Below, piece by piece: positions 1 through 35,663 of a stretch of 64,000 nt of DNA. How positions within the stretch are numbered: position 1 is the stretch's first letter; each line of letters starts with the position of its first letter. The position numbers and the translations under genes were made by a program. This DNA is from Tridacna crocea (lineage: Eukaryota; Mollusca; Bivalvia; Cardiida; Cardiidae). A model generated the notes under the pieces. The model saw nothing but the letters and a program-made list of their open reading frames with translations, had not been told where the DNA came from and searched no databases. The DNA lies in contig OX031058.1 of the NCBI GenBank assembly GCA_943736015.1, forward strand, positions 17,261,001 through 17,325,000, in the 5' to 3' direction.

Positions 1-1810
1 TTTTTGTCCGGAGCATATCTCCAAAAGTATGAAAGCTAGGAACTTGAAACTTCACAAGTGGATAGATCTTATTAAGGAAGCGTGCAGTGTACAAGAACCA
101 TTACTCTATCTTCAGTATTTTTGGAGTTGTTGCCCTTTGTAAATTTTTACTTGGAATTTTTGTCCGTAGCATATCTCCAAAAGTATGAAAGTTAGGAACT
201 TGAAACTTCACACACATATAGAACTCATTGAGGAGGCGTGCAGTGCAAAAGATCCATAAGTCTGTCTTCAGTAATTTTGGAGTTATTGCCCTTTGTAAAT
301 TTTAACTTTGGATTTTTGTCCGTAGCATATCTCCAAAAGTATGAAAGCTGGGAACTTGAAACTTCACAAGTGGATAGATCTCATTAAGGAGGCGTGCAGT
401 GTACAAGAACCATTACTCTATCTTCAGTGTTTTGGGAGTTATTGCCCTTTGTAAATTTTTACTTGGAATTTTTGTCCGTAGCATATCTCCAAAAGTATGA
501 AAGGTAGGAACTTGAAACTTCACAAGTGGATAGATCTCATTAAGGAGGCGTGCAGTGTACAAGAACCATTACACTATCTTCAGTATTTTTGGAGTTATTG
601 CCCTTTGTAAATTTTTACTTCGAATTTTTGTCCAGAGCATATCTCCAAAAGTATGAAAGGTAGGAACTCGAAACTTCACACACATATAGAACTCATTGAG
701 AAGGCATGCAGTGCGAAAGATTCATTACTCTGTCTTCAGTAATTTTGGAGTTATTGCCCTTTGTAAATTTTAACTTTGAACTTTTTTTCGGAGCATAACT
801 CCAAAAGTATGAAAGGTAGGATCTTGAAACTTCACAAGTGGATAGATCTCATTAAGGAGGCGTGCAGTGTACAAGAACAATTACTCTATCTTCAATATTT
901 TTGGAGTAATTGCCCTTTGTACATTTTTTTCTGGAATTTTTGTCTGGAGCATATCTCCAAAAGTATGAAAGCTAGGATTTTGAAACTTCACACACATATA
1001 GAACTCATTGAGGAGGCATGCAGTGCAAAAGATTCATTACTCTGTCTTCAGTAATTTTGGAGTTATTGCCCTTTGTAAATTTTAACTTTGAATTTTTGTC
1101 CGGAGCATATCTCCAAAAGTATAAAAGCTAGGAACTTGAAACTTCACACATATATAGAATTCATTGAGGAGGCGTGCAGTGCGAAAGATCCATTATTCTG
1201 TCTTCAGTATTTTTGGAGTTATTGCCCTTTGTAAATTTTAACTTTGGATTTTTTTCTGGAGCATATCTCCAAAAGTATTTGAAATATCAACTTCAAACTT
1301 CACAAGTGGATAGATCTTATTAAGGAGGCATGCAGTGTACAAGAACCATTACTCTATCTTCAGTGTTTTTGGAGTTATTGCCCTTTGCACATTTTCTTCT
1401 GGAATTTTTGTCCGGAGCATATCTCCAAAAGTATGAAAGGTAGGAACTTGTAATTGTTGAGTTATTGCTCTTTGTAAATTTTCACTTTGGAATTTTGTCC
1501 GGAGCATATCTCCAAAAGTACAAAGGCTAGGAACTTTAAACTTTATACACTTATAGAATTCATTAAGGAGAAGTGCACTTCACAAAAACCAAAACTCTGT
1601 CTTTAGTAATTTTTGAGTTATTGCCCTTTGCTAATTTTTATTTTGGATTTCTGTCTGGCATATATCTCCAAAAGTATAAAAGCTAGGAACTTAAAATTTC
1701 ATACACATATAGAACTAATTGAGGAAAAGTGCAGTGCACAAGAACCATAACTCTATCTTCAGTATTTTTGGAGTGATTGCCCTTTGTAAATTTTTACTTT
1801 GGATTTTTGT
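1..1810 (+). repeat. 156-bp tandem array (left edge cut off)
   Basis: About 11 to 12 units repeat with a 156-bp period; the motif TTTTTGTCCGGAGCATATCT or close variants starts near 1, 157, 313, 469, 625, 781 and 937. Two unit types are mixed: one reads CACAAGTGGATAGATC and the other CACACACATATAGAAC at the same place. The last units (after about 1400) are diverged and one is shortened. ORFs in the array are by-products of the repeat. Arrays of this kind sit inside non-autonomous Helentron-like elements of bivalves, so this is probably the right part of such an element; that is inference. A single diverged stretch at 41140-41340 looks like the front end of a related element. Confidence 0.85.
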
Positions 1811-4008: not shown

Positions 4009-4207
4009 ATGTTACAGTTTAGTATAACTTGGTCGAGTGTATTCATCCTTTTGGACTGTCAACTAAATACAAGAGCAGTAGAAGATTTTCCCTGGACGAC
4101 TGTGGAGATGGCATTGGCCCAGATATGTTCATCTGTTAATGTATGTGGACGCACCGTAGGCTGGAATGTTACTGTACCTTCATCTCGTCGATTCACATGC
4201 TGCAAAG
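4009..4207 (+). CDS. Gene 1 exon 1 (signal peptide and first cysteines)
   Basis: Starts at ATG 4009 and ends before GTAACT at 4208, leaving phase 1. It has the same length (199 nt) as exon 1 of gene 2, with 5 differences in 66 residues (positions 2, 4, 6, 16 and 62). The N-terminus has a hydrophobic stretch (WSSVFILL) typical of a signal peptide. Confidence 0.75.
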
Positions 4208-7200
4208 GTAACTATGGGCAGTAACTTACATATATACCGTGCTTTGAGCATGGTAGTAAAATGCATGTGCCTGCGCTGTACTGACCTTGGTCAAGTTGTT
4301 TTGCTATGAATCAGCTTCTTGCATGACTATGGACCTTGAGGAAGAAGCCTTTCGAACTCATTGTGGGAAAAGGAGAAAATGCTGGTAACCAGCATTTTCT
4401 CCTTTTCCCACGTTTTCTACCTTACAAAAGCAAAATTGCAAAATAAAACTTTCTGGCGGATGGTGAAAACCCGAATATTGTTATTTCAAAGTTATATTTT
4501 TGAAAAAAGAAATCCCATTATCGGATAGTATAGATCAGAGATCACACTGTACAGACTGTGTAGTCTGAACTTGTTCTACACTGTCTGTCCGTTCCATTGT
4601 CCAGAAAGACATCTCTTTAAATCCTTGATGAAAATTGGTGATACACCATACCTGTATTTCTTACGATAGTCCACCGATAAAAATTCTTTTTTTTTTTTAA
4701 TTTGGTGCCGTGTCATCGGAAAAGGGGGCTTGATGTATATTTCCATTATGGACTGATACCTCTTTAACTATTAGACAAAATTTTATGAAACTTCATATTC
4801 ATTTTGTTTGTCGTTGGCCACAGACAATCATATTTGTTTTATCTTTTCAAATGCTACGTTATAGAAAAGGGGGCTCAATGGATAACTTCATTATGGATCA
4901 ATAACTAAAAGGCCTCGTGTACATGCAAAACACAATACCTATTATTTGTTTCCATTTAAAGATGTCTTTAAACATTTTTGTCTCAACGAAATAACCTGCA
5001 TTAAATTGAAAGTTAACAAACTGAAGTTTTTCGTAATATTTCTTGTTTAGAAAAGAAAATATTCAAGAGCGTTAGGTAAAGTCAATTGAGTGAACTGCAT
5101 TTGAATTGAACCGGATTGGATTTAATAACTAGAATGAACCGATGGACCTGTAACAGACTCAGAAACCAAATTTGACAATATTTCCTCAGTCCGGTATAAA
5201 TCAATAAAGATTTACAATTACCATAGCCACTTACCAGTTTCAAATTCGCTAGTCTGTCAGTACTTTCAGTACTTTGATCTAGAATATGTCTCCGTGAGTT
5301 AGGCTACTCCTTAGCCTAATATAGCCTGTTTTACAACCCGCATCTTATAAATCACCAAGAAAATATTTTGACTAATTTTCATATGTATTGAACAGAAAAT
5401 GTGGCCCCTACATCGTACACAAGCTGTTTTAAAGATTTTGCCTGGAAACCTACTTTTTGATCTGATGTGACCCATTTTCGATTTCATACGAGATATCACC
5501 GAGACAAAGATTCTAACAAACGTTTATGAGCATTGGGGGAAAAATATTGTCTCCAGAGTGTACAAAAGGGTTTTCTAAGATTTAATGTATTTACCTAGAT
5601 TTTGACCCAACGTGACTAGTTTTAAAAATATCAAGACACACGATCTTACCAACTTTCATGAGTATTGGACTGAAAATCTAGCCTCTTAAACGTGCACAAG
5701 TTTTTTTTCAGCATTTGAGCCAGTCACCTATTTTTCGACTAGACGTGACCAAAACTCATCATGGAAATCAAGAAGACTAGTTTTCTGACCAGCTTTCAAG
5801 ATGATTGAACTAAAAATGTGGCCTCTAGAAGTTTTTTTTCCCTAAGAGTTGACCTGGCGACATAGTTTTTGACCCGACATGACAAACGTTCACACAAGTC
5901 CAAGATACCATCAAAACAAATAGAATGACCCATTTTCAAACTTGTCTGACATACATGTATCATCAATGCAAACATTCAGACAAACGTTAAAGAGTTTTGG
6001 GTTTAAATGTGGCCTCTAGAGAGTGCACAAGGCTTTCAAAGATTTGATCTGGTAGCCTACTTTTTGATCCGCCGTAACCTATTTTCGAACTCGTCCGAGA
6101 TATCATTGCCATAAAGATTAAAAAATTTCATGAGTATCAGACTGAAAATGTGGCCTCTAAAGCGTACAAAAGCTATTTTCAAAAGTTGATGACGCACACA
6201 GCACTGCGTACGACGGACACAGCACGATTACAAAAGCTCACATCGAGCACTTTGTTCTCAAAAGACCGAAAAGTAATATAACACTGGCATATATGAAACT
6301 GAAACATGTACACTTTAATGAGAATTGAAAAATATAGACTATCTACCGCTATGACGACAAATTATTGAATATGTTCACGATGAAAGCATTTTCTGACGAT
6401 GAATGATTTCCCACATGCTGTAATCTATCTTTGCACACATAAAAAAAATTGATGGAAGAGGATTTCTGTCATTTATATTTTTTCAGTTGTTTTAAAAGAC
6501 TTCTACCATGGGGTCGTTGAATCTTGTGTTTTTTGCAAAAGGTACAATTGCTAGAATGAACACTGAATATATTTAAGAACAATGTTGTTTTCAGATTGTG
6601 CATGTGACGACAACTGCGAACAGCGCGGAGATTGTTGTTTTCCACAAGCCCATACTGAAAACACTGGAAAGTGTATGTACCCTAGAACAAGGTATCAGTT
6701 TGAAGCACTTTCTAAACATGACCAGTCTATCTACATCATTGACACACCACCGCGAAACGGTTGTGTAACCAGAAACAGTTCAGGTTGTCACGGAGATGAG
6801 ATATTACAGCCTGTATCGTCAGAGAACACAGGAGCTGTTTATTCTAATGAGAACTGTGCACATTGTCATGAAACTGGTGACTTCAAACAATGGGAACCCG
6901 ACCTGAAATGCGAAATGCACCGTAGTGTTGATACAATTGACATTTTTAGCTCACCTGAGCACGAAGTGCTCATGGTGAGCTATTGTGATCGTGCTGTGTC
7001 CGTCGTGCGTCGTGCGTCGTCCGTCGTCAACTTTTTACCTTGTGTACGCTCTAGAGGCCACAGTTTTGGTCGGATACTCATGAAAGTTGGTCAGGATGTT
7101 TGTCTCGATGAAATCTCGGACGAGTTCGAAAATGGGTCATGTGGGGTCAAAAACTAGGTCACTAGGTCAAATCTTAGAAAAACCTTGTGTACGCTCTAGA

Positions 7201-10200
7201 GGCCGCATTTTGAGTCCGATACTCATGAAAGTTGGTCAGGATGTTTGTCTCGATGATATCTCGGACGAGTTCGAAAATGGGTCATGTGGGGTCAAAAACT
7301 AGGTCACTAGGTCAAATCTTAGAAAAACCTTGTGTACGCTCTAGAGGCCGCATTTTGAGTCCGATACTCATGAAAGTTGGTCAGGATGTTTGTCTCGATG
7401 ATATCTCGGACGAGTTCGAAAATGGGTCACGTGGGGTCAAAAACTAGGTCACCAGGTCAAATCTTAGAAAAACCTTGTGTACGCTCTAGAGGCCGCATTT
7501 TCAGTCGGATACTCATGAAAGTTGGTGAGGATGTTTGTCTCGATGATTTCTCGGATGAGTTCGAAAGTGGGTCACGTGGGGTCAAAAACTAGGTCACCAG
7601 GTCAAATCTTAGAAAAACCTTGTGTACGCTCTAGAGGCCACATTTTCAGTCGGATACTCATGAAAGTTGGTCAGGATGTTTGTCTGGATGATATCTCGGA
7701 CGAGTTCGAAAGTGGGTCACGTGGGGTCAAAAACTAGGTCACCAGGTCAAATCTTAGAAAAACCTTTTGTACGCTCTACAGGCCACATTTTCAGTCGGAT
7801 ACTCATGAAAAATGGTCAGAATGTTTGTCTGGATGATATCTCGGACGAGTTTGAAAGTGGGTCACGTGGGGTCAAAAACTAGGTCACCAGGTCAAATCTT
7901 AGAAAAACCTTTTGTACGCTCTACAGGCCACATTTTCAGTCCGATACTCATGAAAGTTGGTCAGGATGTTTGTCTCGATGATATCTCGGACGAGTTCGAA
8001 AATGGGTCACGTGGGGTCAAAAACTAGGTCACCAGGTCAAATCTTAGAAAAACCTTTTGTACGCTCTAGAGGCCACATTTTTAGTCGGATACTCATGAAA
8101 GTTGGTCAGGATGTTTGTCTGGATGATATCTCGGACGAGTTTGAAAATGGGTCACGTGGGGTCAAAAACTAGGTCACCAGGTCAAATCTTAGAAAAACCT
8201 TTTGTACGCTCTAGAGGCCACATTTTCAGTCGGATACTCATGAAAGTTGGTTAGAATGTTTGTCTGGATGATATCTCGGACGAGTTTGAAAATGGGTCAC
8301 GTGGGGTCAAAAACTAGGTCACTAGGTCAAATCTTAGAAAAACCTTTTGTACGCTCTAGAGGCCATATTTTCAGTTGGATACTCATGAAAGTTGGTCAGG
8401 ATGTTTGCCTGGATGATATCTCGGACAAGAACAAAAATGGGTCATGTGGGGTTAAAAACTAGGTCACTAGGTCAAATGTTAGAAAAACCTGTTGTAGGCT
8501 CTAGAGGCCACATTTTCAGTCCGAAACTCTTGTAAGTTGGTCAGAATGTTTGTCTTGATGATATCTCAGACAGGTTTGAAAATGGGTCATTGGGGGTTAA
8601 AAACTAGGTCACCAGGTCAAATCTTAGAAAAACCTTGTATATGCTCTGGATGCCACATTTTCAGTCCAACACTCTTGAAAATTAGTCAGAATGTTTGCCT
8701 TTATAATATCTTGGATGAGTTTGAATATGGGTCATGTTGGGTCAAAAACTGGGTCAATATGTCAAATGTTATAAACACCTTTTGTATGCTCTGGAGGACA
8801 CATTTTCAGTCTGATACTCCTAAAACTTGTTCATAATATTTGTCCTGGTGATACCTTAAATGAGTTTGAAAATGGGTCATGTGGAGTCAGAAACTAGGTC
8901 AATGGGTCAAATATTAGAAAAACCTTGTGTACACTCCAGAGGCTACATTTTCTGCCTGATACTCTTCAGACTTGGTCAGAATGTTTGTTTTGGTGATGTC
9001 TCAAAAGAGTTTGATAATGGGTATTTGTCGGGTCCAAAACTAGGTCACTTGATGAAATCTTAGAAAAACCTTTTGTACACTGTAGAGGCCACATTTTCAG
9101 TCCAATACTCATGAAACTTGGCCAGAATGTTTGTCTTATTGATATCTCAAAAGTGTTTGATGATGGGTAATGTCTAATAAAAAACTAGGTCACTGGGAAA
9201 CTAGATGGTGCATGTTTGGTCAATAAACTCAGGTGAGCGATTTCAGGGCCATCATGGCCCTCTTGTTTCCGAATTGTTATCATTAGCAAAAAATCCGGAA
9301 ACCTCTCTTTGTTATCTCGGTTTTGCCATTAACCCAGACGATGACCAAACTTGCATTATTTACAGAAATGTAAGTCGAATTTCGGATAATTATCCAGTAA
9401 ATCCGATAAGTTGGACAAACATGACGGAAGAAGAAATTCGAGACATTTGCTTCAGTGGCTTTACCTTGCCATTCTATTATCCCGTCCACAGACTGTGGTA
9501 TCGAAATCCATTTTGTTTTCTATACGAGCGGGGTCCAACAATTTTGCAATGTAATGAATATGTCCGTGTAGGGCAGGACATGTCCAGCTTTGCAGCGTTA
9601 CTGAAAGCTGACACTGTTTCCCAAGTCGTATCTCAAGGCATGGGTCTTTGTAATAGTTGTTACCAGGAAGTTTGTCACAGAGGTAGCAAACTTGTAGGTA
9701 CTTTTTGTTTTGTTTTTGTTTTGTTTTTAGTTAGTCTTTTCAGCTTTACATAAAAATTTAACCTTTAGCCCTTAAAGGTGCCCTTCAGGTTTTTGGACGA
9801 AAATTTTACAAAAGTGCAAAAAAATCATCCTTATACTCCCAAAGCCTTTTAATTTTCATTCATAAAATCCCAGTAGTCGAAAACCGTCCGACGACACGAA
9901 AAATTAGAGATTTATTACGGCCCAGGTTGACATCAACGGGAGACACATTCTATTTTTAGATGATCAATTCGCTCATTTACTTACAGGAATACACAGAAGA
10001 AGCTTCAAACATAGCGTCCGAAGAAGACATCGTGGAAAATAATTATTACATGTTTGTTACGATAGGGAATTTAAGCGTTATGAGTCATGTGCCAGTCACT
10101 TGACATTCCCACAGTGCTTTACTGATTTTTGGCGCGAAATCTAAAAATAGCTTAAGAGGCTACGTAGCCTTTTAAGGGAATACAGTCAATTTTTTTTTTT

Positions 10201-13200
10201 GTAATTTTATGAATCTTAATTATTGATGATTTGTATTATTTTTTTCAAATGAATTTCAGTGATATAGATAATTTTTAATTTGGTGAGATGTAAAAATTCT
10301 AAATACCCACCTTTAACAGAATCTTGGATCCATCCATAGGAAAAATATCTGCACTGGACAAATGCGGCAGAATAATACACTGAAACGAACTTCTAAATGG
10401 CCACTTTTAAGCTGTAATTTCCTATTGACGTTTTTTTGCGTCCGCTGCCTATAAAAAGGACGGGTAATTTGGTTTCATTTTTCGCAGAATAATTGCCCGG
10501 TCTGAAAACATACCTGAGCCAAATTTTGAAGGGAATTCATTCAATTTTATCGCGGAAGAAACTTATTCGTCGTCCATTCACTCAACATTGTAAATCGAAA
10601 TATCAATTTTTGAAAACTTCATGCTTGTTTTTTTCGGATAACATTTCTTTCACAGAGAATAATTTTCATGTTTTTTCCTATTGCTTACAGAAGTCCAGTA
10701 TTTTATGCTTCTCTTTTTAAACTGTTTTGGCTGGTAGACACCACGCACGTGCAAGCAACTAGTTTTCCTTTTTTCGAAAAAGGGATTTCTTTTGTTGGCA
10801 AAATCGGGAATCTTTTCACCACAATACTATGGTTGACGTCCAGATATACGTCACAATTTGTATTTATTAACATTTTTTTTACTTGGTCCACTTTATAGGA
10901 GAAACAAAAGTGGCCGTTTAGAAGTTCATTTTAGTGTAGAATTTGTCTTTAAAAGGACAGAAAACATTTTTGATGAAATGCTGGTTACCCTCTGGGTCGT
11001 GTAAACTCAGGAATGTTTAGAAAGGACTATGTTAAAGAGTCGAAAAAGTAAATGATAAGACATGTTATTTCATGCTTTCCGGTATGATATCGAGAAATAG
11101 CAGTGATAATATTTTTCGATCTTACACGGGTACGACCAGTGAAAATTCCGATTTTTGTGTCCTCGTTGACTAGATAAATTGCGCGTGCCTGACAACTAGA
11201 TGGGAAATATAACGTCATTTACCTTACATTTTCTCGCGCTTGACGTAATATTGTAATGAGTTGCTATGCGGGAGGGGTACACCACGGGGAAAAACGGAAA
11301 AGAACTGTACTGGATTTTGATAAAGCTCCTTCCAGAATGGGCTAAAAGCATGAAATAAATAGAATATTTGTTTTTTTTCTGTGAAAGATCGAAATTTATT
11401 TCATCTCGTGAACACCATAGGTAATACTTTCACTCGTGGCTGCGCCACTCGTGAAAATATTACCGATGGTGTTCACTCGATGAAACAAATTTCAATCTTT
11501 CATCGAAAAAAACCCCCCAAATATCCTCTATCTATTATGATGACAAGTAAGAAAGACCGAGATAGGCCATTTTTATACATCAGGACAACTCACATATACA
11601 GAGCAATGTAGATCAAAGACCAGGTTTTCTTTGTCATGTCCATCTTCGCAAGCCAGGGATACTAAGGTAGTACCCTTCGCCGCTCGCCTCTTTGAAAATC
11701 GAAGCTCCCGTTGCACCATTTCATTGGATGCGATCAAAAGCCATCGCGTCCAATCAAACCATTCGTAACAAAAAATCTTTCGGAAAACAGAAAACAGTTA
11801 TGGCGGCGACCGTCAAAAAAGAAAGTTGTCGTGTTTGTGACGAAAATTTGCGAAAAAAAAAAAGCAGACGATCGATATTTAATGAGTTTTTTTTTATAGT
11901 TCACGATCAATTATGTGAAGTATTACGAAGGGTTCCTAAGTCAAATGATTGCGAATCATAGTATGTCTGTTCGTCTTGTTTTTGATGTGATGAATCCGAA
12001 AGCGCAGTCATATTTGATGCATAGACTAACAAATTTTATTACATGCATTTTGATGGACCAGAAATAACACCAGCAAAGGTTACGCAACTCGTGATACTCG
12101 ATAGGTAGCGCACCGGGAATTTCTATTTTTAAAGAGGCGAGCGGCCCAAGGTACGTAACGAACAAAGTGGAGTTAGTATCCTTGGCTTGCGAAGATGTGC
12201 CATGTCTAGAACAGTAAAAATGTGTTACTACATATCGAAAAAAGAAATGTTTTGAAATCAACCTAATGTGATATTGTTGTTGTAAACAGAATTATATAAA
12301 CATTGTAGCTACACGATAACTAATTACTAATTAACAACAATATTATCTCAGGTTTTTCAATTTCATTGTCTCGTTTGTACTCATATGTCGGTTTTTCCCT
12401 CGTTTACAGAAAAGTCAACGGCATCAACTTACGTTTGGCAATGTCTTATTTTCAGAGAAAGCATCATCGGAGGTGCCGACCAGTTTATTGCCCAACAGGA
12501 CAAATGTTTGACTTAGAAGGTAACTGTGTGCTAATCACCAATTTCATTTTAATGGGTGGCAGAAGAATTGTGTCCATTCAGATCAGACTGACAGCCTTGG
12601 GTGACAAAAAGTACAACAGGACCAATTTTTTAAGACTCAACGTGACTGATGTAGAAATGGCCATACCGTGGCCCGCTTCATGGAGAATTTCATTTCTAGC
12701 GTTAGCACACGCTGAGGGTAGCAACATCACGTGGACGCCAGACGTAATGATGGTCCTTGAAACTTGGCAAGGAGATTTGAGGTCAAACATTGATGAAGTA
12801 AAACTATCTCTCTCAAAATACATCGCGTTGACTATCGGTGGTATTGAAACAATGTTTAGACAGACAATATATCACCAAACAATAAGAAGATTTGTAAATA
12901 CCGATAAAATTCGAACAACTTTTGTATTTGACTACGTTAAAGAGATTGGCCTCATTGTTGACCTTGCAGACATTGACTTGATCATTTGGGAAGAGTTATA
13001 TTTGTCATCTACCTACTTCTACAACAAAATTATGCTGTCAAAATTGTACTTATGTCCACAAATAGAACTGGCCCCTGACGAGTTTTTGTTACTCGCTGAC
13101 CAACGCTTGCTCTACCATCTCGACAGCGGCTTGTACTTTTACGGGAGAGAATTTCATTTAAATGGAAACGGCAATATTACAACAGCGAGGATATGTGCGG

Positions 13201-13337
13201 AAGAAATAGGATATAGTGTTCATGATCAGAGTTCTGGATGTCAGTCCTGGAAAAGTGAAGAAAACTTTGGTGTTTTGGTGTATCGAATATTGCATATCCT
13301 TATACTCTATGTAATAAAAGTGAGCCAAGCTCTATAA
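4009..13337 (+). CDS. Gene 1: somatomedin-B-domain ectodomain protein (molluscan Mth/secretin-receptor-like), exon 2 split by a HINE element
   Basis: Proposed exons are 4009-4207, 6595-6974, 9247-9693 and 12456-13337, joining to an open frame of 635 codons. Residues 1 to about 23 look like a signal peptide. A cysteine cluster at about 40-90 (VNVCGR, TCCK, CDDNCEQRGDCCFP) fits a somatomedin-B fold. Next comes the motif NENCAHCHETGD with W and C, as in ectodomains of molluscan Methuselah/secretin-like receptors, then CRPVYCPTGQ and CPQIELAPDEF, which in that family precede the first membrane helix. There are several N-glycosylation sequons (NVT, NIT, NMT). The chain stops shortly after the point where helix 1 should begin (VLVYRILHILILYV), so no seven-helix part is encoded. 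Exon 2 is interrupted by the element at 6947-9266. If that element is not spliced out, translation stops at 7157. The ligand and role are unknown; it may be secreted or tail-anchored. Confidence 0.7.
4329..4430. mobile_element. Partial TTAA-MITE (family A) in intron 1 of gene 1
   Basis: Carries the central palindrome (GGAGAAAATGCTGGTAACCA) and one arm (GACCTTGAGGAAGAAGCC). The outer ends are missing or too diverged to place. Confidence 0.7.
4431..5329. other. Intron 1 of gene 1, first part
   Basis: No coding signal. It holds a diverged copy of the short GATCAGACTGCAC palindrome family at about 4525-4595 and a dispersed repeat at about 4740-5000 related to 1870-1990. Confidence 0.5.
5330..6265 (-). 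mobile_element. Old HINE-like element, antisense in intron 1
   Basis: Degenerate reverse-complement copies of the 145-bp unit seen at 7030-9200: GTGGCCTCTAGAG, ACTTTTTGATCC, TCGTCCGAGATATCATTG and CATGAGTATCAGACTGAAAA recur about every 145 bp over some six units. It ends near 6265 with the antisense of the element front (ACGACGGACACAGCACGATT, then GCTCACATCGAGCAC). It is far more diverged than the exon 2 element, so it is an older insertion of the same family. Confidence 0.75.
6595..6974 (+). CDS. Gene 1 exon 2, left part
   Basis: Acceptor TTTTCAG ends at 6594 and the first bases AT complete a GAT codon with the last G of exon 1. It encodes the CACDDNCEQRGDCCFP core and the NENCAHCH motif. 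From 6947 the sequence is element-derived and adds SSPEHEVLM in frame before a strong donor, ATG|GTGAGC, at 6975. Confidence 0.65.
6947..9266 (+). mobile_element. HINE (non-autonomous Helentron-like) element inserted in exon 2 of gene 1
   Basis: About 2320 bp. Seen directly: subterminal inverted repeats GCTCACCTGAG (6949-6959) and CTCAGGTGAGC (9228-9238); a front hairpin made of GAGCAC/GTGCTC and GCTCACC/GGTGAGC; a short GTCGTGCGTC-rich tract; a 145-bp tandem array; and a perfect 17-nt terminal hairpin AGGGCCATCATGGCCCT (9245-9261) followed by CTTGT. This layout (subterminal repeats, internal tandem repeats, 3' hairpin, insertion between T residues, no target duplication) is that of Helentron-associated HINEs. 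Removing 6947-9266 rejoins GACATTTT with TTCCGAATTG, matching GACATTTTCTCCGAATTG in gene 2 at the same place, so the ends are well placed. There is no transposase or helicase gene inside. Confidence 0.85.
7030..9200 (+). repeat. 145-bp tandem array inside the HINE element
   Basis: About 15 units with a strict 145-bp spacing (for example GTTGGTCAGGATGTTTGTCT and its variants recur every 145 bp). The first ten or so units are nearly identical; units after about 8460 drift steadily and include small length changes. Since 145 is not a multiple of 3, each unit shifts frame, which generates a ladder of overlapping 71-codon ORFs. These are not genes. Confidence 0.9.
9247..9693 (+). CDS. Gene 1 exon 2, right part
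   Basis: Begins after TTTCAG (9241-9246) near the element's 3' end, phase 0, with seven element-derived residues GHHGPLV, then the host sequence SELLSLAKNPETS. It encodes the CFSGFTLPFYYP and WYRNPFCFLYERG cysteine segments. The exit donor is placed at CTT|GTAGGT (9694) because only that phase joins exon 3 in frame; the alternative TAG|GTACTT at 9698 would not. Confidence 0.65.
9769..10182 (+). mobile_element. Dispersed repeat H, intron 2 of gene 1
   Basis: About 410 bp, bounded by CCTTAAAGGTGCCCTTCAGG and CTACGTAGCCTTTTAAGGG. A second copy lies in reverse orientation at 47842-48251. Absent from the equivalent intron of gene 2. No ORF. Confidence 0.7.
10377..10938 (+). mobile_element. TIR element I, intron 2 of gene 1
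   Basis: Terminal inverted repeats of about 27 bp: ACACTGAAACGAACTTCTAA at the left and GGCCGTTTAGAAGTTCATTT at the right. A second copy lies in reverse orientation at 53887-54464. It has no transposase, so it is a MITE-like element. Absent from gene 2. Confidence 0.75.
11060..11518 (+). mobile_element. Dispersed repeat J, intron 2 of gene 1
   Basis: Contains ATGCTTTCCGGTATGATATC at one end and an inner inverted repeat near the other (GTGAAAGATCG with AATCTTTCATCG, and GTGAACACCAT with GATGGTGTTCAC). A reverse-orientation copy is at 57110-57523. No ORF. Confidence 0.65.
11641..12197 (+). mobile_element. TIR element carrying a broken ZAD-like zinc-finger exon
   Basis: Inverted ends of about 60 bp: CATCTTCGCAAGCCAGGGAT at the left and CCTTGGCTTGCGAAGATG at the right, with CGCTCGCCTCTTT also inverted inside. 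CATGTC flanks both sides (11635-11640 and, three bases off the end, 12201-12206). Gene 2 intron 2 has the uninterrupted TTTTCTTTGTAACATAGG at this place. Between the ends lies a stretch encoding ESCRVCDENL, KSRRSIFNE and, after one stop, YVCSSC (see 11692-11990). Confidence 0.6.
11692..11990 (+). pseudogene. ZAD-like zinc-finger domain fragment (degenerate)
   Basis: The frame reads ESCRVCDENL, about 45 residues with RRSIFNEFFF, then a TAG and YVCSSC. The Cx2C ... Cx2C spacing resembles the zinc-finger-associated (ZAD-like) domain found at the N-terminus of many zinc-finger proteins. The stop between the two cysteine pairs and the missing downstream exons argue for a dead fragment carried by the surrounding TIR element. 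The family call rests only on cysteine spacing. Confidence 0.35.
12456..13337 (+). CDS. Gene 1 exon 3 (last exon)
   Basis: Follows the acceptor TTATTTTCAG at 12455, phase 0, and begins RKHHRRCRPVYCPTG. It encodes a roughly 200-residue mixed region with sequons NRT, NVT and NIT, then LYLCPQIELAPDEF and a second cysteine-containing segment (RICAEEIGY, SSGCQSW). It ends at TAA 13335-13337 after a hydrophobic stretch. An AATAAA lies at 13313-13318, inside the coding end. It is closely similar to exon 3 of gene 2. Confidence 0.75.
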   Translation, partial: RKHHRRCRPVYCPTGQMFDLEGNCVLITNFILMGGRRIVSIQIRLTALGDKKYNRTNFLRLNVTDVEMAIPWPASWRISFLALAHAEGSNITWTPDVMMVLETWQGDLRSNIDEVKLSLSKYIALTIGGIETMFRQTIYHQTIRRFVNTDKIRTTFVFDYVKEIGLIVDLADIDLIIWEELYLSSTYFYNKIMLSKLYLCPQIELAPDEFLLLADQRLLYHLDSGLYFYGREFHLNGNGNITTARICAEEIGYSVHDQSSGCQSWKSEENFGVLVYRILHILILYVIKVSQAL

Positions 13338-14010: not shown

Positions 14011-14656
14011 ATAAAGGTGGTGTAACGTTACAATTCAAATACGATAAGAAATGGAAGCAACATGTTCCCTTTTATGTAATTTTAGGTAAAGAGAATGTTT
14101 CAAGGTGAAAATCTCTCGACTTCATCCCTTTTAAACGACCCCCTCCCTCAGAATTCAGGCTTTGAAAACATTGTGGGAAAAGGAAAAAAACTCCTTACAT
14201 GTGGCCTTTGTCTCATTAAACATTCTCCATGTTATTGAAAGGAAATTAGTTTTTTCTTTCCTTCGAATGTATTATCATTATGTTGTTTGAGCTTTGTTTC
14301 AAAGATACTTGTTATAGAGACACTTCTAAAATGACCCGCTCGTCACAACTCGGCCGATTCCGTATCCAGATCTAATTGATCAACGGATCACCTGAGGATT
14401 TCCGAATGTCAGATGATCCTGTATTGCATTCTTTGAAACCTGATACACCGGTCAACTAGTGGTCTCATGAGTCTAGTCCTGCTTTAATAGTGACAGCATT
14501 TTAACAGATTATGAGGAAACAGTAAAACCGTTACAAAGTTAGAGGAGTGTAATTGGTCATATTTTCAATTACGGGAATAATTACATAGCTCAAATGTCTC
14601 CTGAAGGGCACTGTATAGGAGAAGTTAAACTCTCCATATACCATACAACCCTTGAT
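14011..14656. other. Downstream of gene 1, shared with unit 2
   Basis: No gene. The sequence is colinear with 33140-33600 in unit 2 (shared TTCAGGCTTTGAAAACA and GTCACAACTCGGCC) and contains a very diverged family A remnant near 14160-14250. Confidence 0.6.
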
Positions 14657-14885
14657 TTAACTCTTTACCACACAACAAAATTTTAGACTGGTTCGAATTG
14701 AAAGCATTTGCGGACAACAAAATAAAGGTGACTGAAAAATTGGAATTTGATTTGGGAAGGGTAGAAAACACTGTGGGAAAAGGAGAAAATGCTGGTTACC
14801 AGCATTTTCTCCTTTTCCTAAAGTGTTTTCAAAAGGCTTCTTTCTCAGGGGCGTCAAAAGTAGGGATTGTGTGGTAATGGGTTAA
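14657..14885. mobile_element. TTAA-MITE family A, well-preserved copy
   Basis: Reference copy of the commonest element here. It is flanked by TTAA at both ends (14657-14660, 14882-14885), with imperfect inverted ends CTCTTTACCACAC and GTGTGGTAATGGG. The arms contain GACTGGT, TTGAAAGCATTTGC and GGGGCGTCAAAAGTAGGGAT. The centre is a 43-bp palindrome around AATGCTGGTTACCAGCATT flanked by GGAAAAGGAGAA and TTCTCCTTTTCC. The TTAA target suggests mobilisation by a piggyBac-type transposase; none is encoded in the window. Confidence 0.85.
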
Positions 14886-15148: not shown

Positions 15149-15377
15149 TTAACTCATTACCACACGACAAAATTTTAGACTGGTCCAAATCAAAAGCATT
15201 TGCAGACGACAAAATAAAGGTGACCGAAAAATTAAAATTTGGTTTGGGAAGGGTAGAAAACACTGCGGGAAAAGGAGAAAATGCTGGTTACCAGCATTTT
15301 CTCCTTTTCCCACAGTGTTTTCAAAAGGCTTCTTTCACAGGGGCGTCAAAAGTAGGGATTGTGTGGTAATGGGTTAA
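15149..15377. mobile_element. TTAA-MITE family A
   Basis: TTAA at 15149-15152 and 15374-15377, intact central palindrome. It has no equivalent in unit 2 and lies only some 90 bp from the older copy at 14890-15058. Confidence 0.85.
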
Positions 15378-27580: not shown

Positions 27581-27779
27581 ATGATACAGATAAGTTTAAC
27601 TTGGTCGAGTGTGTTCATCCTATTGAACTGTCAACTAAATACAAGAGCAGTAGAAGATTTTCCCTGGACGACTGTGGAGATGGCATTGGCCCAGATATGT
27701 TCATCTGTTAATGTATGTGGACGCACCGTAGGCTGGAATGTTACTGTACCTTCATCTCGTCGATTGACATGCTGCAAAG
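27581..27779 (+). CDS. Gene 2 exon 1
   Basis: ATG at 27581, donor AAAG|GTAACT at 27780, phase 1. The same structure as gene 1 exon 1 supports the start codon, since the block just upstream is also conserved but not in an open frame. Confidence 0.8.
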
Positions 27780-30700
27780 GTAACTATGGACAAATGCATG
27801 TGAAAAAAAGTATCGAATCGCGTCAGACTGCGCAGTCCTGACCTTGGTCGAGTTGTTTTGCTACGAATCGGGTTTCTTGCGTGTCTATGAATCTGCCTAC
27901 CTCGTGATTTAGTTGTTTATGAGACAAATGGATTTTATGAATCTGTATTTATATGATGACTTGCTTAGTATGATGTATCACAGAGTAATATGAGATCCCC
28001 ATTCCCAGAGCACGCCTCAATTTATAAATTTGACTGCCTCTTACCAATGTCTTTATTAGTTGTACGGTCAGGTAGCAGGGGACTTGGAAACTTGTTCACG
28101 GCTGTGGTTAATCATGTCGCCCCGAGCTTCTCAGACATACATGCACAGGGTGTTTCATGATATATGGCTAAATGTTAATAAATGCAAGACAATAAAATCT
28201 ATACCATGGAATAAGTTGAAGAATACAGTTTTATTATATGAAGTGTATGTGCGGTAACATTGAAGAATAATTGAAGGTAGCTCCTTTCTAAACATATTAA
28301 TTATTCGGAATGACGTCCAGTTTTACGTAACAGGACACTGTCTCTTCACGAAATTTGCTTTTACCGATCAGCTCGTCCTGGTTGTGATCATTCTAATCTC
28401 TGTAACTATTGATGTCTTAACCCTTTCCCAAACAATCCCTGGTTTTTACGGGTCAGGAAAAGAAGCCTTTTGAAAACATTGTGGGAAAAGGAGAAAATGC
28501 TGATCACCAGCATTTTCCCCTTTTCCCACAATGTTTTCTACCCTATCATACAGAAAATCATCTTTTTAGAAACTGTTAATTTGTCAACTGCAAAATGCTT
28601 TCAATTTGGTCTGGTCCAAAATTTGCCGTTTGGGAAAGGGTTAAGGCCATCTGTTGTCTGTGGCTTGACTTTATGCACATTGTACGGGATGCTTTGGAGT
28701 GATGAAAAAGTGGGCGTTTTTTCTTGAGGACAGTGCTGAAGACGCTGCATCATTTACCTGGAACGGTATTGGCAGCTTTTCACATGAGGCAAAAAAGTTA
28801 TGGCAGAATCCCTAGTAGGGTATATAGTATAAGAGGAAATGGAGTTTCAGCAAAATGGTACAACACCTCACGCAGCCTAAAGCATATTGAAATGGTTGCA
28901 AGGCGAGTTCGATTCAAAAGGAATCTTAAAAAAGACCGTTACCCTCACTCGCCGGAAATTTATATAAGCCATTTGCACGCTTTCTGTGAGGTTATGGCGA
29001 CAGTGTGGATTAAGTCCAGCCTAAAGAAACAGACAAGCTCAGTAGCTCAGGAGATGAGACCGATCTCAAACAAAACACGCAGATTGATGAAAGCCAATTT
29101 TATGAAGAGGCCGATTGCCCTGCGACATAAACGGACATCATTATGAATATTTAATATAAATCGATGCATATTTTGAAAAGTTCTAGCCACCTTCATGGTT
29201 TAATGTCACCATACATATTCCATAAACTACGAGGGAAGGTCAATAAGTGCGTAGAACTCGATATTTTTCTATACAATTCAAAATTTCTTCTTTCATTTTT
29301 TTGCAGTATAAACCTTTGTCATTTGAATGATTACAGCAATTTAGTCAGCTCTTACTTTTTTTGCTCTTACTTTATGTTGGAAAACCTATACTCATAGGCA
29401 AAAATAGAAAGTCAGAAGCCACTCTGTAGCAGCCTTGAGCTCGTTATCGTCAGGAAACCTCGCTCTAAGCAAGTAGGATGTCAAATTTGGGAACAGACAA
29501 TTATCACTTGGGGCCAGTCTGGACTGTATGGTGGGTGATTTCAATGCTGAAACTTGCACTCACAAATAGCCGCTTGTGCAACTCTTGGCTTGCGCTCTGA
29601 ACTCAGTATTCTGACTTTTCATTTTTGTCTTTGGTAACAGGTTTTCCAACAAAAAGTAAGAGCAGAAATTGTAAAGTGTTGACTGAATGGCTTTTATCAT
29701 TCATCTGGCAAAGGTTTATACTGCACAAAGAACTAAAAAAAATGAATTGTAAAGAAAAATACCGAGTTCTACGAACTTATTGACCTCCTCTCGTATATCC
29801 TTAAACTTACGAAATGGAAGAAATTGTATTGCATTACCTTTATAAATAATATAACTTATGCATATTTGAAAGTGTCATGTATATTAAGGAACACTCTGTA
29901 TCACTGTATAGTAGATACTAGCACCCTAGATTAAATAAGAGTTGAAATGTATTGACCGTTTTCCGCTTCTATGACAAATTTTTGAATATGTTTATATTGA
30001 ATGCATTCTCTGACGAGGAATAAATTTCCTGTAATGTGTCTCTGAACAGCTAAAAACGTCGTGGGAACAGGATTTAATGCTGGTTTCCATCACTTTCTCT
30101 TTTTCCCAGAATATTTCAAAAGCCATCTCCCTCGGGGTCGTTTAAACTCGCGATGTTTTGCAAAGAAAATAGTTATTACGACTGAACTTAAAATATGTAC
30201 ATAAGTACAGTGTTGTTTCCAGATTGCTCCTGTGACGACAACTGCGAAAAACGAGGAGATTGTTGTTTTCCACAAGCCCATACTGAAAACACTGGAAAGT
30301 GTATGTACCCTAGAACAAGATATCAGTTTGAAGCACTTTCTAAACATGACCAGTCTATCTACATCATTGACACACCACCGCGAAACGGTTGTGTAACCAG
30401 AAACAGTTCAGGTTGTAACGGAGATGAGGTATTACAGCCTGTGTCATCAGAGAGCACGAGAATGGTTTATTCTAATGAAAACTGTGCAATTTGTCATGAA
30501 GCTGGTGACTTTAAACAATGGGAACCGGTGCTGCACTGCGAAATGCACCGTAGTGTTGATACCATTGACATTTTCTCCGAATTGATATCTTTAGTAAAAA
30601 ATCCGGAAACCTCTCTTTGTTATGTCGGTTTCGCCTTTAGCGGAGACGATACCTCAGCGATGAAAGACCAAACTTGCTTTATTTACAGAAATGTTAGTCG

Positions 30701-32901
30701 AATATCGGACTATGATCCTCTAAATAGGATAAATTGGCCAAACATGACGGAAGAAGAAATTCGAGACATTTGCTTCAGTGGCTTTACCATGCCATTCTAT
30801 TATCCCGTCGACAGACTGTGGTATCGAAATCCATTTTGTTTTCTGTACGAGAAGGGTCCACCTATTTTACCATGCGATGAATATGTCCGTGTAGGGCAGG
30901 ACATATTCAGTTTTGCAGCATTACTGAAGGTTGACACTATTTCCCAAGCCGTATCTCAAGACATGGGTCTTTGTAAGAGTTGTTACCAGGAAGTCTGTCA
31001 AAGGGAAAGAAAACTTGTAGGTATTTTTTTTCGTTTTTGTGGTTAGTGCCTTCAAGCACCAGTCAATTATAGTCTTTTCGGCTTAACAAATTTAACCTTT
31101 AACTCTTTACAAAATCCATTGGTAAAGTATTTGCTTAAGACAAATTTGGCAAGAGTGATAGCATTTGTCTTTGAAAGGACAGAAAAAATTCTGGGAATAT
31201 GTCTGAAAATATTGGTTACCCCTAAGGTCGTGTAAAATCATGATGGAAAAAGAAACTCATAAGCCATACTATTATGATGACAAGTAAGAAAGACCAAGAC
31301 ATGCTCTTTCTACACACCATGATATCTCACAGAATTATACAGAACAAAGTACACAGGTAGATCAAAGACCAGGGTGCGTATTCACCAATCATTCTTAAGA
31401 ACGTTCTTGGTTTTATTTTCAGGATTTTCTGATTGTGAAAGTAACAGAACATCTGATTGGCTAAACCAAATGGTTTAGCCAATCAAAAATTCTGTTACTT
31501 TCACAATGATGAAATCCTGAAGAATAAGACTAAGAACATTCTTAAAAATGGCTAGTGAATACGAACTCTGGATCCATATTCACCAACGATTCATAAGAAC
31601 ATTATTAGTCCTATTCTCCAAGATTTTCTGAACTTGAACGTAAATGATTTCGCAAATCAAAAGTTTTTTTCTTTTAAACTTAGAAAATTCTCGAGATTAA
31701 GACGAAGAACATTCTTAAAATGGTCGATTGATACTCTCCCAGGTTTTCTTTGTAACATAGGACTAAAAAAGTTCTGATATATATCGAAAAAATGAAGTAT
31801 TTTGAAATTGACCTAGAATTATATTGTTGTTGTAAATCTTATTATCTATAGATACATTGTATTGCTTATTTAATATAGAACAATTGCTTTTAACAACAAT
31901 ATTGTTTCAGGTCAATTCAGTATCCTTGTCTCATTTGTACCATAATTATGCCGATTTTTCTGTCGTTTATAGAAAGATCAATGACATTAACTTAGTAAAA
32001 ATTGAAAATACCTTATTTCCAGAGAAAACATCATCAGAGGTGCCGACCAGTTTATTGTCCAACAGGACAAATGTTTGATTTAGAAGGCAACTGTATGTTC
32101 ATCACCAATTTCATGGTAATGAGTATCGGAAGAATTTTGTCCATTCAGATCAGACTGACAGCCTTAGTTGACAAAAAGTACAACATGACCGATTTTTTAA
32201 GTCTCAACGTGGCTGATGTAGAAATGGCCATACCGTGGCCCGCTTCATGGAGAATTACATTTCTAGCACTAGCACATGCAGAAGCTAGCAACATCACGTG
32301 GACGCCAGATGTACTGATGGTCCTTGAAACTGCTGAAGGAAATCTTAGGTCGAATATTCATGACGTAAAATTATCTCTCTCAAAGCGCATTGGGTTGACT
32401 GTCGGTGGAAATGAAACAATGTTTAGACAGACAATATATCACCAAAAAATAAGAAGATTTGTAAAAACCGATAAAATTCGAACAACTGTATTATTTTACT
32501 ACGTTAAAGAGATTGGCCTCACTGTTGACCTTGCGGACATTGACTTGATCATTTGGGAAGAGTTATATTTGTCATCTACCTACTTCTACAACAAAATTAT
32601 ACTGTCAAAATTGTACTTATGTCCACAAATAGAACTGGCCCCTGACGAGTTTTTGTTACTCGCTGACCGACGATTGCTTTACCATCTCGACAGCGACTTG
32701 TATTTTTACGAGAGGGAATTTCATTTAAATGAAAACGGCAACATCACAACAGCGAGGATATGTGCGGAAGAAATAGGATATGGTGTTCATGCTCAGAGGT
32801 CTGGCTGTCATTCTTGGAAATGTGCTGAAATATTTTGTATTTTGGTCTACAGAATACTACCTACTCTTATTCTCAATACAGTCACATTTTTATTATGGTA
32901 A
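27581..32901 (+). CDS. Gene 2: somatomedin-B-domain ectodomain protein (molluscan Mth/secretin-receptor-like)
   Basis: Exons 27581-27779, 30223-31016 and 32023-32901 join in frame to 623 codons plus stop. A signal peptide (WSSVFILL core) is followed by a somatomedin-B-like cysteine cluster at about 40-90 (TCCK, then CSCDDNCEKRGDCCFP), the NENCAICHEAGD motif at about 151-162, CFSGFTMPFYYP, WYRNPFCFLYEKG, CKSCYQEVC, CRPVYCPTGQ and CPQIELAPDEF. These are the ectodomain landmarks of molluscan seven-helix receptors with SMB domains, from general knowledge of that family. The chain ends with a hydrophobic tail of about 20 residues (ILVYRILPTLILNTVTFLLW) and a TAA; no further helices are encoded downstream. 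It could be tail- or GPI-anchored, secreted, or a relic of a receptor gene. The uninterrupted DIFSEL at 182-187 is the empty site for the element in gene 1. Confidence 0.8.
28417..28644. mobile_element. TTAA-MITE family A in intron 1 of gene 2
   Basis: TTAA at 28417-28420 and 28641-28644. The palindrome centre is changed to GCTGATCACCAGC, which keeps base pairing. It is an independent insertion from the one at 4329-4430. Confidence 0.8.
29225..29800 (-). mobile_element. Mariner-derived fold-back with a transposase C-terminus
   Basis: Long inverted ends: GAGGGAAGGTCAATAAGTGC and CGTAGAACTCGATATTTTTC at the left, matched by GAAAAATACCGAGTTCTACG and ACTTATTGACCTCCTCTCGT at the right. Inside, the minus strand (about 29570 to 29390) reads HPPYSPDW, then after a frameshift SDNCLFPNLTSYLLRARFPD and ELKAATEWLL. 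This is the end of a mariner DD34D transposase, with the third catalytic Asp in the SD pair. All upstream catalytic parts are missing, so it is a dead, internally deleted copy whose right part is an inverted copy of its left part. Confidence 0.75.
29801..30222. other. End of intron 1 of gene 2
   Basis: No gene. It contains a diverged family A half copy near 30050-30160. The bases before exon 2 end TGTTGTTTCCAG. Confidence 0.5.
30223..31016 (+). CDS. Gene 2 exon 2 (uninterrupted)
   Basis: Acceptor TTTCCAG at 30222. The donor is placed at CTT|GTAGGT (31017) because 199 + 794 nt is a multiple of 3 and exon 3 opens in phase 0. It includes SAMK around GDDTSAMKDQTC, which is missing from gene 1. 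Confidence 0.8.
31373..31570. mobile_element. Fold-back MITE family E, copy 1
   Basis: Arms GTATTCACCAATCATTCTTA, then GTTCTT and GATTGGCTAAACCA, are inverted as TGGTTTAGCCAATCAAAAAT and CTAGTGAATACGAAC. A second, more diverged copy follows directly at 31571-31740. A clean copy is at 55590-55799. Confidence 0.75.
31571..31740. mobile_element. Fold-back MITE family E, copy 2 (diverged)
   Basis: Begins ATATTCACCAACGATTCATA and ends GGTCGATTGATAC. The inner arms are partly lost. It lies head to tail with the previous copy in intron 2 of gene 2. Confidence 0.55.
32023..32901 (+). CDS. Gene 2 exon 3 (last exon)
   Basis: Acceptor TTATTTCCAG at 32022. It encodes RKHHQRCRPVYCPTG to the hydrophobic tail and TAA. 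A GTAATA just at the stop could act as a donor, but no exon with membrane helices follows within the window. Confidence 0.8.
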   Translation, partial: RKHHQRCRPVYCPTGQMFDLEGNCMFITNFMVMSIGRILSIQIRLTALVDKKYNMTDFLSLNVADVEMAIPWPASWRITFLALAHAEASNITWTPDVLMVLETAEGNLRSNIHDVKLSLSKRIGLTVGGNETMFRQTIYHQKIRRFVKTDKIRTTVLFYYVKEIGLTVDLADIDLIIWEELYLSSTYFYNKIILSKLYLCPQIELAPDEFLLLADRRLLYHLDSDLYFYEREFHLNENGNITTARICAEEIGYGVHAQRSGCHSWKCAEIFCILVYRILPTLILNTVTFLLW

Positions 32902-34249: not shown

Positions 34250-35297
34250 TATACTCCACAAAAAAATTAAAGGGTCAAGTACAAAGTGTGAAAGCGATTA
34301 CGTCAACGTAGATTTATTAGAAAACAAAATATGGCATTCAATTAAAGAACCGTTTGACATCATTGTTAGGTATAAATTTCGTCTTAAAAAGTTGAATGTC
34401 TTATCACAATTCTTCGTTAGATACGACCACCCTTCAAAGTAGGGGTGCCAGACAGGGTGGGTGGAGTAAAATAAGCAATAAACTAATCATCCAACGGTAT
34501 GGGTTTTTATTCAAAATGCATGTTAGTACCGCGTGTGTCCACCACGCGCATTAATCACTTCCTGGCATCTACGGGGGAAGCTGAGAATTAACCTCCTGAT
34601 GTCTGCAACTAGTATTCGGCGCCATTCTTCAACCAGGAAATTTGACAACTCCTCAGCTGTCCTTGGTTGAGAATGCGACTGGATAATCGGCGTTGAAGAA
34701 TGTCCCAGGCATTCTGTATAGGATGAAGGTCCTGCGACCTTGCTGGCCAGTCCATCCTTTCGATACCCTCCTGCTCGAGATACTGATTCACCACTCTCGC
34801 AAGGTGTCGTCTTGCATTGTCGTACATCAGAATGAAGCCATGACCGCATGCTCCAGCGTAAGGGCGTACAACAGGGTCTAGGACTTCGTCTCTGTATCTA
34901 ACACCGTCAGGGCCCCATTTTTAATGACGTACAGGTCCCTACGTCCATCAAGGGATATGCCAGCCCATACGAGCATTGATCCCCCACCATATCTGTCATG
35001 CTCTGCCACACACCAATCATGAAAACGCTCATTTCTTTGTCTCCACACTGGTCTCCGCCCGTCATTGAAATCCAGATTGAATCTTGACTCGTCCGACCAC
35101 AAAATGTTTCGAAAATGTTGACGTCCAAGTTGCACATGATCACGGGCAAACACAACACGACATCTGCGATGGTGTGGGGTCAAGGGTGGTAGCACCACCG
35201 GTCTTTTGGCCCACAGGTTTGCTCCATGAAGTCTGTTCCTAATGGTTTGAACAGAGATTCTGTACCCATATGTCTGTTCAAAGTCTCTGTTGAGCGT
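34250..35297 (-). pseudogene. Tc1-like transposase remnant
   Basis: Minus-strand pieces in two frames: TIRNRLHGANLWAKRP (helix-turn-helix end), NILWSDESRFNLDF (first catalytic Asp), DRYGGGSMLVWAGIS, and, after a frameshift near 34850-34880, MYDNARRHLARVVNQYLEQ (second Asp) and SQDLHPIQNAWDILQRRLSS. The third acidic residue, expected 35 positions after the second Asp (DD34E), is Gln in HPIQN. The N-terminus is missing because the element abuts a family A MITE half (35291-35372). One end near 34255 reads ACTCCACAAAAAAATTAAAG, similar to Tc1 termini. Dead element, only in unit 2. Confidence 0.85.
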
Positions 35298-35372
35298 AAC
35301 TCGTTTGTTTTGTCGTCTGCAAGTGCTTTCAATTTGGACCAGTCTTAAATTTTGTTGTTTAGTAAAGAGGTA
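35291..35372. mobile_element. Half copy of TTAA-MITE family A beside the Tc1 remnant
   Basis: Keeps only the arm GTCTGCAAGTGCTTTCAATT with the end TTTAGTAAAGAGGTAA. The palindrome is gone, replaced by the Tc1 remnant. Confidence 0.65.
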
Positions 35373-35434
35373 AGAATTGACTTGCTTTATAGTCGTGTCT
35401 TGAAGATTTGTTTCAGGCAACAATGGAGTAACCT

Positions 35435-35663
35435 TTAACTCTTTACCAAACGACAAAATTTTAGACTGGTCCAAATTGAAAGCATTTGCAGACGACAAAA
35501 TAAAAGTGACTGAAAATTCGAAATTTGTTCTCTGAAGGGTAGAAAACATTGTCGGAAAAGGAGAAAATACTAGTTACCAGCATTTTCTCCTTTTCCCACA
35601 ATGTTTTCTAAAGGCTTCTTTCTTATGGGCGTCAAAAGTAGGGATTGTGTGGTAATGGGTTAA
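35435..35663. mobile_element. TTAA-MITE family A
   Basis: TTAA at 35435-35438 and 35660-35663. One palindrome arm has an A for G change (AATACTAGTTACCAGC). A more diverged copy follows at about 35664-35830. Confidence 0.85.

What the first reader, a model, noticed from the sequence alone, without database searches (positions are those of the whole stretch)
6947..9266. A HINE element inside a coding exon that carries its own splice sites and may have become a new intron
The element splits exon 2 of gene 1, yet both sides stay open. Near its front is ATG|GTGAGC (donor at 6975) and in its 3' hairpin is TTTCAG|GGC (acceptor 9246). Both are in phase 0. Splicing 6975-9246 would leave 48 element-derived bases (16 codons, SSPEHEVLM plus GHHGPLV) between DIF and SEL and keep the full 635-codon frame. 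The donor is the GGTGAGC of the element's own front hairpin, so any sense-oriented copy of this family would bring the same signals: a possible introner-like property for a Helentron-type family. Weak point: the pyrimidine tract before the acceptor is poor.
Basis: partly seen in the sequence, partly recalled or inferred. Interest (0 to 1): 0.92.

Follow-up and report, generated by a model that had tools for sequence, protein, structure and literature searches.

The report
Young HINE transposon splitting an exon
A recently inserted mobile DNA element interrupts one exon of a duplicated gene, and although it carries a good splice donor that could in principle let the cell cut it out as a new intron, the matching acceptor is weak and nothing yet shows that this happens.

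Summary
A 2,320-bp HINE-type (Helentron-like) element, about 6948-9267, splits exon 2 of gene 1; a tandem paralogue holds the empty site. Splicing 6975-9246 leaves 27+21 = 48 bases and gives 635 codons. Both splice motifs are intact in 38 of 40 copies examined, and the residue is open in two of three phases, so the signals do belong to the family.

That the element is a working intron is not shown. It is very young: 1 private substitution in 2,321 sites among 39 copies, so open flanks are expected even if the gene is dead. By a yardstick recalled from memory the donor is good (rank 2 of 257), but 32 AG sites score as well as or better than the acceptor, which falls below all four presumed real acceptors of the two genes. 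A stronger donor lies at 9233, 10 array acceptors would truncate the protein, AATAAA precedes the acceptor, and both sites lie in hairpin stems.

Best reading: a recent, mainly disruptive insertion with a latent introner-like capacity. The genome-wide junction search did not complete.

The parts
4009..4207 (+). gene 1, inferred exon 1 (ATG to AAAG|GTAACT)
   Evidence: opens the 635-codon frame; 4010-4208 is 96% identical to 27582-27780 by gene 2
6595..6947 (+). gene 1, exon 2, part before the insertion
   Evidence: lies in a match 6314-6946 of 81% DNA identity to gene 2; acceptor TTTTCAG ends at 6594
6948..9267 (+). HINE-type element, 2,320 bp (ends ambiguous by the flanking Ts)
   Evidence: 40 genome places with agreeing ends; empty site in gene 2
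6947..6982 (+). front hairpin (TAGCTCACC/GGTGAGCTA and TGAGCAC/GTGCTCA) holding the candidate donor
   Evidence: RNA -27.3 kcal/mol, z -5.5
6975..6980 (+). candidate splice donor ATG|GTGAGC
   Evidence: rank 2 of 257 GT sites (weights recalled); motif in 39 of 40 copies
7037..9194 (+). array of 14.9 units of 145 bp, with 10 TTTCAG acceptor-like sites
   Evidence: TRF
9222..9227 (+). AATAAA, polyadenylation-like signal in the element's 3' block
   Evidence: AATAAACTCAG in 40 of 40 copies
9229..9239 (+). 3' subterminal inverted repeat CTCAGGTGAGC; also the strongest donor-like site, CAG|GTGAGC, first intron base 9233
   Evidence: rank 1 of 257; AACTCAGGTGAGC in 39 of 39 aligned copies
9241..9246 (+). 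candidate acceptor TTTCAG|GGC
   Evidence: listed 26th of 180 AG sites, with ties 32 score as well or better; motif in 39 of 40 copies
9245..9261 (+). 3' hairpin AGGGCCAT/ATGGCCCT; its first two bases are the acceptor AG
9268..9693 (+). gene 1, exon 2, part after the insertion (donor CTT|GTAGGT)
   Evidence: lies in a match 9268-9719 of 86% DNA identity to gene 2
12456..13337 (+). gene 1, inferred exon 3 to the first stop; true 3' end uncertain
30223..31016 (+). gene 2, exon 2: paralogue with the empty site

Best explanation
A young HINE (non-autonomous, Helentron-like rolling-circle element) inserted at a T-run in exon 2 of one of two closely related tandem genes. Shown: the insertion, the empty site in the paralogue, the family by sequence, the recent date, and that the element's end hairpins carry a good donor and a weak acceptor leaving a 48-base, frame-neutral residue. 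Inferred: most transcripts retain the element, end in it or use its other splice or polyadenylation-like sites, so that this allele of gene 1 is mainly disrupted, while a minor fraction could be spliced 6974/9247. The donor is a by-product of the transposon's palindromic subterminal repeat, which happens to resemble a splice donor, rather than a signal evolved for splicing.
For: 40 places including this one, the others at 97-99%; 1 private substitution in 2,321 sites against dS 0.22 between gene 1 and gene 2, so intact frames say little about function after insertion. Ten TTTCAG acceptors before 9246 would all end the protein at 199-206 aa; retention ends it at 253 aa. The strongest donor is at 9233. 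9246 scores below all four presumed real acceptors of the two genes (-0.84 against -0.03, 1.52, 3.74, 3.75). AATAAA at 9222. Both splice sites are base-paired in end hairpins. All 22 other family matches in the genome run across this place in one open frame.
Against: Donor 6975 scores above all four presumed real donors of the two genes (5.72 against 3.63, 0.48, 3.63, 0.48) and the nearest strong-consensus rival acceptor, 9232, scores much lower than 9246 (-3.22). 6975/9246 is the only qualifying pair wholly inside the element that restores the whole frame. No other break was found in the 635-codon frame. No transcript evidence in either direction.
Confidence: 0.68

Rival explanations
1. The element works as a new spliceosomal intron: spliced 6975-9246, it adds 16 codons (SSPEHEVLM + GHHGPLV) and gene 1 stays functional; sense copies of the family would behave as introners.
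For: Good donor; both motifs in 38 of 40 copies; 48-base residue open in 2 of 3 phases; whole frame kept. An Aureococcus introner that carries both splice sites and adds 12 bp is reported in PMC9860276 (passages).
Against: Weak acceptor with AGs at 9231-9232 and 9236-9237 just upstream, 10 array acceptors that truncate, a stronger donor at 9233, splice sites in stems. At 2.27 kb it is longer than the 30-654 nt family medians in PMC9860276. Of 40 copies the only long sense frame across the site is this copy's own; two antisense copies have one too.
Confidence: 0.15
2. Transcripts of gene 1 end at the element's AATAAA (9222), giving a truncated message (one form of the disruption in the best explanation).
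For: AATAAACTCAG in 40 of 40 copies, followed by T-rich sequence TTGTTT.
Against: A hexamer alone is weak evidence; no 3'-end data.
Confidence: 0.12
3. The element is removed from mRNA by spliceosome-independent 'SOS splicing' (RTCB ligation), helped by pairing of its inverted subterminal repeats.
For: GCTCACCTGAG (6949-6959) and CTCAGGTGAGC (9229-9239) are exact inverted repeats (read from the sequence). The pathway is described in the review PMC13247085 (passages).
Against: 11-bp repeats 2.3 kb apart; the passages seen name no Helentron; the primary paper is not held, so a need for paired repeats is recalled, not read.
Confidence: 0.05
4. The insertion is a rare or heterozygous allele and most chromosomes carry intact gene 1, so no splicing is needed. 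Compatible with the best explanation.
For: Very young insertion.
Against: Not testable with one assembly.
Confidence: 0.3

Closest known systems
HINE / DINE-1-like non-autonomous Helentrons (PMC4067079) and Cg_HINE of Pacific oyster (PMC7492417)
   Same: Palindromic subterminal inverted repeats, 3' stem-loop, central tandem repeats, T-rich target; no sizeable frame of its own
   Different: 3' repeat and 3' hairpin lie nearer the end (28 and 6 bp) than the about 38-60 and 8-35 bp given for the mite families; the autonomous partner was not sought. 'splice' does not occur in the held main text of either paper
Introners (Gozashti et al. 2022, PMC9860276)
   Same: A mobile DNA family carrying both splice signals, able in principle to leave a short in-frame insertion, like the Aureococcus case that adds 12 bp
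   Different: 2.3 kb rather than family medians of 30-654 nt; no splicing shown; copies not shown to lie mainly in genes; 'Helitron' does not occur in that main text
Ds-type intron creation in maize (Giroux et al. 1994, seen only as a reference in PMC3443670)
   Same: A DNA transposon in a gene giving a new intron, by its title
   Different: That Ds splicing was seen in transcripts is recalled; here it is only a sequence prediction

Membership tests
HINE (non-autonomous Helentron) | Subterminal inverted repeats at both ends | tested here: met
   GCTCACCTGAG 6949-6959 and CTCAGGTGAGC 9229-9239 (by eye); front palindrome
HINE (non-autonomous Helentron) | Stem-loop near the 3' end | tested here: met
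   AGGGCCAT/ATGGCCCT 9245-9261; the 3' stretch as a whole folds little better than shuffles (z -1.2)
HINE (non-autonomous Helentron) | Insertion in T-rich target, no target-site duplication | tested here: met
   TTTT stands before the TAGCTC start in 38 of 40 copies. PMC4067079 counts such Ts as part of the element, but gene 2 has TTTTC at the empty site; no duplication beyond Ts there
HINE (non-autonomous Helentron) | Multi-copy, no coding capacity | tested here: met
   40 places scored of 5,724 first-look candidates; the longest frame listed wholly inside is 112 codons, stop to stop
HINE (non-autonomous Helentron) | Shared ends with an autonomous Helentron (Rep/Helicase, endonuclease) | not tested
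   no search made for the partner
Introner | Copies are spliced introns in mature transcripts | not testable with these tools
   no RNA data; protein database switched off
Introner | Many copies create introns at new positions in different genes | tested here: inconclusive
   3 of 40 copies have a joined-flank frame over 150 codons: L001 (this one, sense), L032 (antisense, OTU-like), L033 (antisense, 166 codons, doubtful); sample too small
Introner | Splice signals conserved across copies | tested here: met
   38 of 40 copies keep both motifs, but in copies this young that shows only recent common descent

The most novel reading that the evidence does not exclude
The HINE family is a rolling-circle introner: its subterminal repeat doubles as a donor (ATG|GTGAGC) and its 3' hairpin as an acceptor, set so that any sense copy in an exon leaves a 48-base, frame-neutral residue free of stops in two of three phases, making insertions in exons partly tolerated.
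Probability: 0.1. Interest if true: 0.85.

Novelty: new member of a known kind. Interest (0 to 1): 0.42.

Why it matters
Among the animals and land plants surveyed by Gozashti et al., introners were found in only two groups, both animal (passage), and 'Helitron' does not occur in that main text. If an abundant animal HINE family can be spliced from exons, it would give a directly testable route of intron gain, with a paralogue holding the empty site as a built-in control. If not, this is still a clean, recent case of a HINE breaking an exon.

Tried and rejected
Chance alone as the source of the frame: not excluded. With an acceptor cut-off set low enough to admit 9246, 12 of 585 site pairs keep the frame, one of them wholly in the element; with a cut-off near the weakest presumed real acceptor 11 of 422 do, none wholly in the element. 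Open flanks as evidence for splicing: rejected because of the insertion's youth; L032, an antisense copy in a 357-codon joined frame with an OTU-like domain (E 2.6e-4, 21.9 bits, below Pfam's cut-off of 23.3), shows that open flanks also occur in the other orientation. A retrocopied spliced junction in the own genome would have been strong evidence; that search did not complete. The junction and an element-end pattern in viral contigs and an element-end pattern in prokaryote genome contigs gave 0 matches; those collections are not expected to hold this animal. First gene 1 models took exon 3 from gene 2 by mistake and were replaced. One search paired L030 with the front of an older neighbouring element; one search corrected this (standard copy, 2,356 bp, donor motif present), so one search's 37 of 40 becomes 38 of 40; L030 stayed out of the alignment. 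Splice scores use human-like weights from memory and are a yardstick only. Literature listings: introner + Helitron 2 papers; Helentron + HINE 5; at least three of introner/transposable element/intron gain/transposon/bivalve 383, 25 listed; introner from 2023 on 24; SOS splicing terms 3; transposon-insertion splicing terms 1; Helitron/splice sites/intron gain/exonization/DINE-1 46, 12 listed. No listed title describes a HINE spliced as an intron; of these papers I saw passages of five only (and one section of PMC7492417), none whole.

Full report
The thing. The window lies at G000:C3:17261001-17325000 of a 1.05-Gb assembly in 31 contigs. I take it for a mollusc, probably a bivalve, from the look of its repeats; that is recalled and was not tested. 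At 6948-9267 stands a 2,320-bp element made of a front hairpin, a short tract of 7-base steps (copies differ in length mostly by sevens), 14.9 units of a 145-bp tandem repeat, a subterminal repeat and a 3' hairpin. The genome search scored 40 of 5,724 first-look candidates: this copy and 39 others at 97-99%. TTTT stands before the start in 38 of 40 and the 3' end reads CTTGTT in 36 of 40. These features are those of HINEs, non-autonomous Helentrons (PMC4067079, passages; PMC7492417, passages and section 9).

The host gene. Gene 1 (exons 4009-4207, 6595-9693 with the insertion, 12456-13337) and gene 2 (27581-27779, 30223-31016, 32023-32901) are tandem paralogues: dN 0.083, dS 0.218 over 617 codons (NG86). 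Gene 2 reads DIF|SEL where gene 1 holds the element. Exon 2 of gene 2 has 25 matches in the genome (42 candidates scored): itself, two for the halves of gene 1, and 22 others at 26-33% identity, some as weak as E 8.5e-4, each spanning this place in one open frame. Pfam names no domain above its cut-off for the exon stretches scanned; exon 1 and the second part of exon 2 of gene 1 were not scanned. Similarity between the genes fades just before the stop of exon 3, so the last codons of the 635 are uncertain.

The splice claim. The residue is a multiple of three for any copy with these ends. It is open in two of three phases and has stops in the third. Of 40 copies, 38 keep both motifs: L038 lacks the donor motif and L037 the acceptor motif. 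On human-like weights from memory the donor scores 5.72, second of 257 GT sites and above the four presumed real donors of the two genes (0.48 and 3.63, twice each). The acceptor scores -0.84; 32 of 180 AG sites score as well or better, itself included, and the four presumed real acceptors score -0.03, 1.52, 3.74 and 3.75.

Against it. (1) The acceptor has a short T-run, with AGs at 9231-9232 and 9236-9237 just before it; use of 9232, itself a poor site (-3.22), would end the protein at 210 aa. (2) The array holds 10 TTTCAG sites, several with the same score as 9246, and all 10 would end the protein at 199-206 aa. (3) The strongest donor in the stretch is CAG|GTGAGC at 9233, in the 3' subterminal repeat, 13 bases upstream of the acceptor's last base. 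(4) AATAAA stands at 9222 and is kept in 40 of 40 copies. (5) Donor 6975 is paired with GCTCAC 6949-6954 in a hairpin of -27.3 kcal/mol (shuffles mean -12.4, z -5.5), and the acceptor AG is the base of the 3' stem; the 3' stretch as a whole folds little better than shuffles (z -1.2).

Why open frames do not help. The copy differs from its two nearest relatives at 4 and 5 of 2,321 sites and has one private substitution among the 39 aligned copies; L030 was left out of that alignment. At such an age about one substitution is expected in 635 codons, so a stop would be unlikely whether or not the gene still works (inference). Of the 40 copies, joined flanks give frames over 150 codons in three: L032 (357, antisense, OTU-like), L001 (288, sense, this gene) and L033 (166, antisense, doubtful) (L030 redone, 46 codons). 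That is no excess of sense copies, but the sample is far too small to decide.

Conclusion. The family carries a latent capacity for splicing, and it is a fair hypothesis that some message of gene 1 is spliced 6974/9247. The evidence favours a recent, mainly disruptive insertion. In PMC9860276 (passages) introner families have median lengths of 30 to 654 nt, occur in two animal groups only among animals and land plants, and include a case that carries both splice sites and adds 12 bp, so the proposed mode has a precedent of another origin.

Noticed in passing
window 5351-6260: An older, antisense relative of the same element (about 70% identity over 944 columns) lies in inferred intron 1 of gene 1.
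   Followed up: partly
window 1-1810: A different tandem array, period 156 bp, at the left edge of the window.
   Followed up: no
window 34878-35573, minus strand: A frame with a Tc3-type transposase DNA-binding domain (PF01498, E 4.9e-13).
   Followed up: no
window 14656-14885, 15149-15377, 35434-35663, 28417-28644: A dispersed repeat of about 230 bp around both genes, in both orientations.
   Followed up: no
L032: A copy of the same element, antisense, splits a 357-codon frame with an OTU-like domain.
   Followed up: partly
L030: The copy stands about 830 bp behind the front of an older relative, with the same TGACCCTTTTT before both starts.
   Followed up: no
window 9229-9239 and 6949-6959: The subterminal repeat read on its own strand is CTCAGGTGAGC, close to a splice-donor consensus (recalled), so the element offers donor-like sites in both orientations.
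   Followed up: partly
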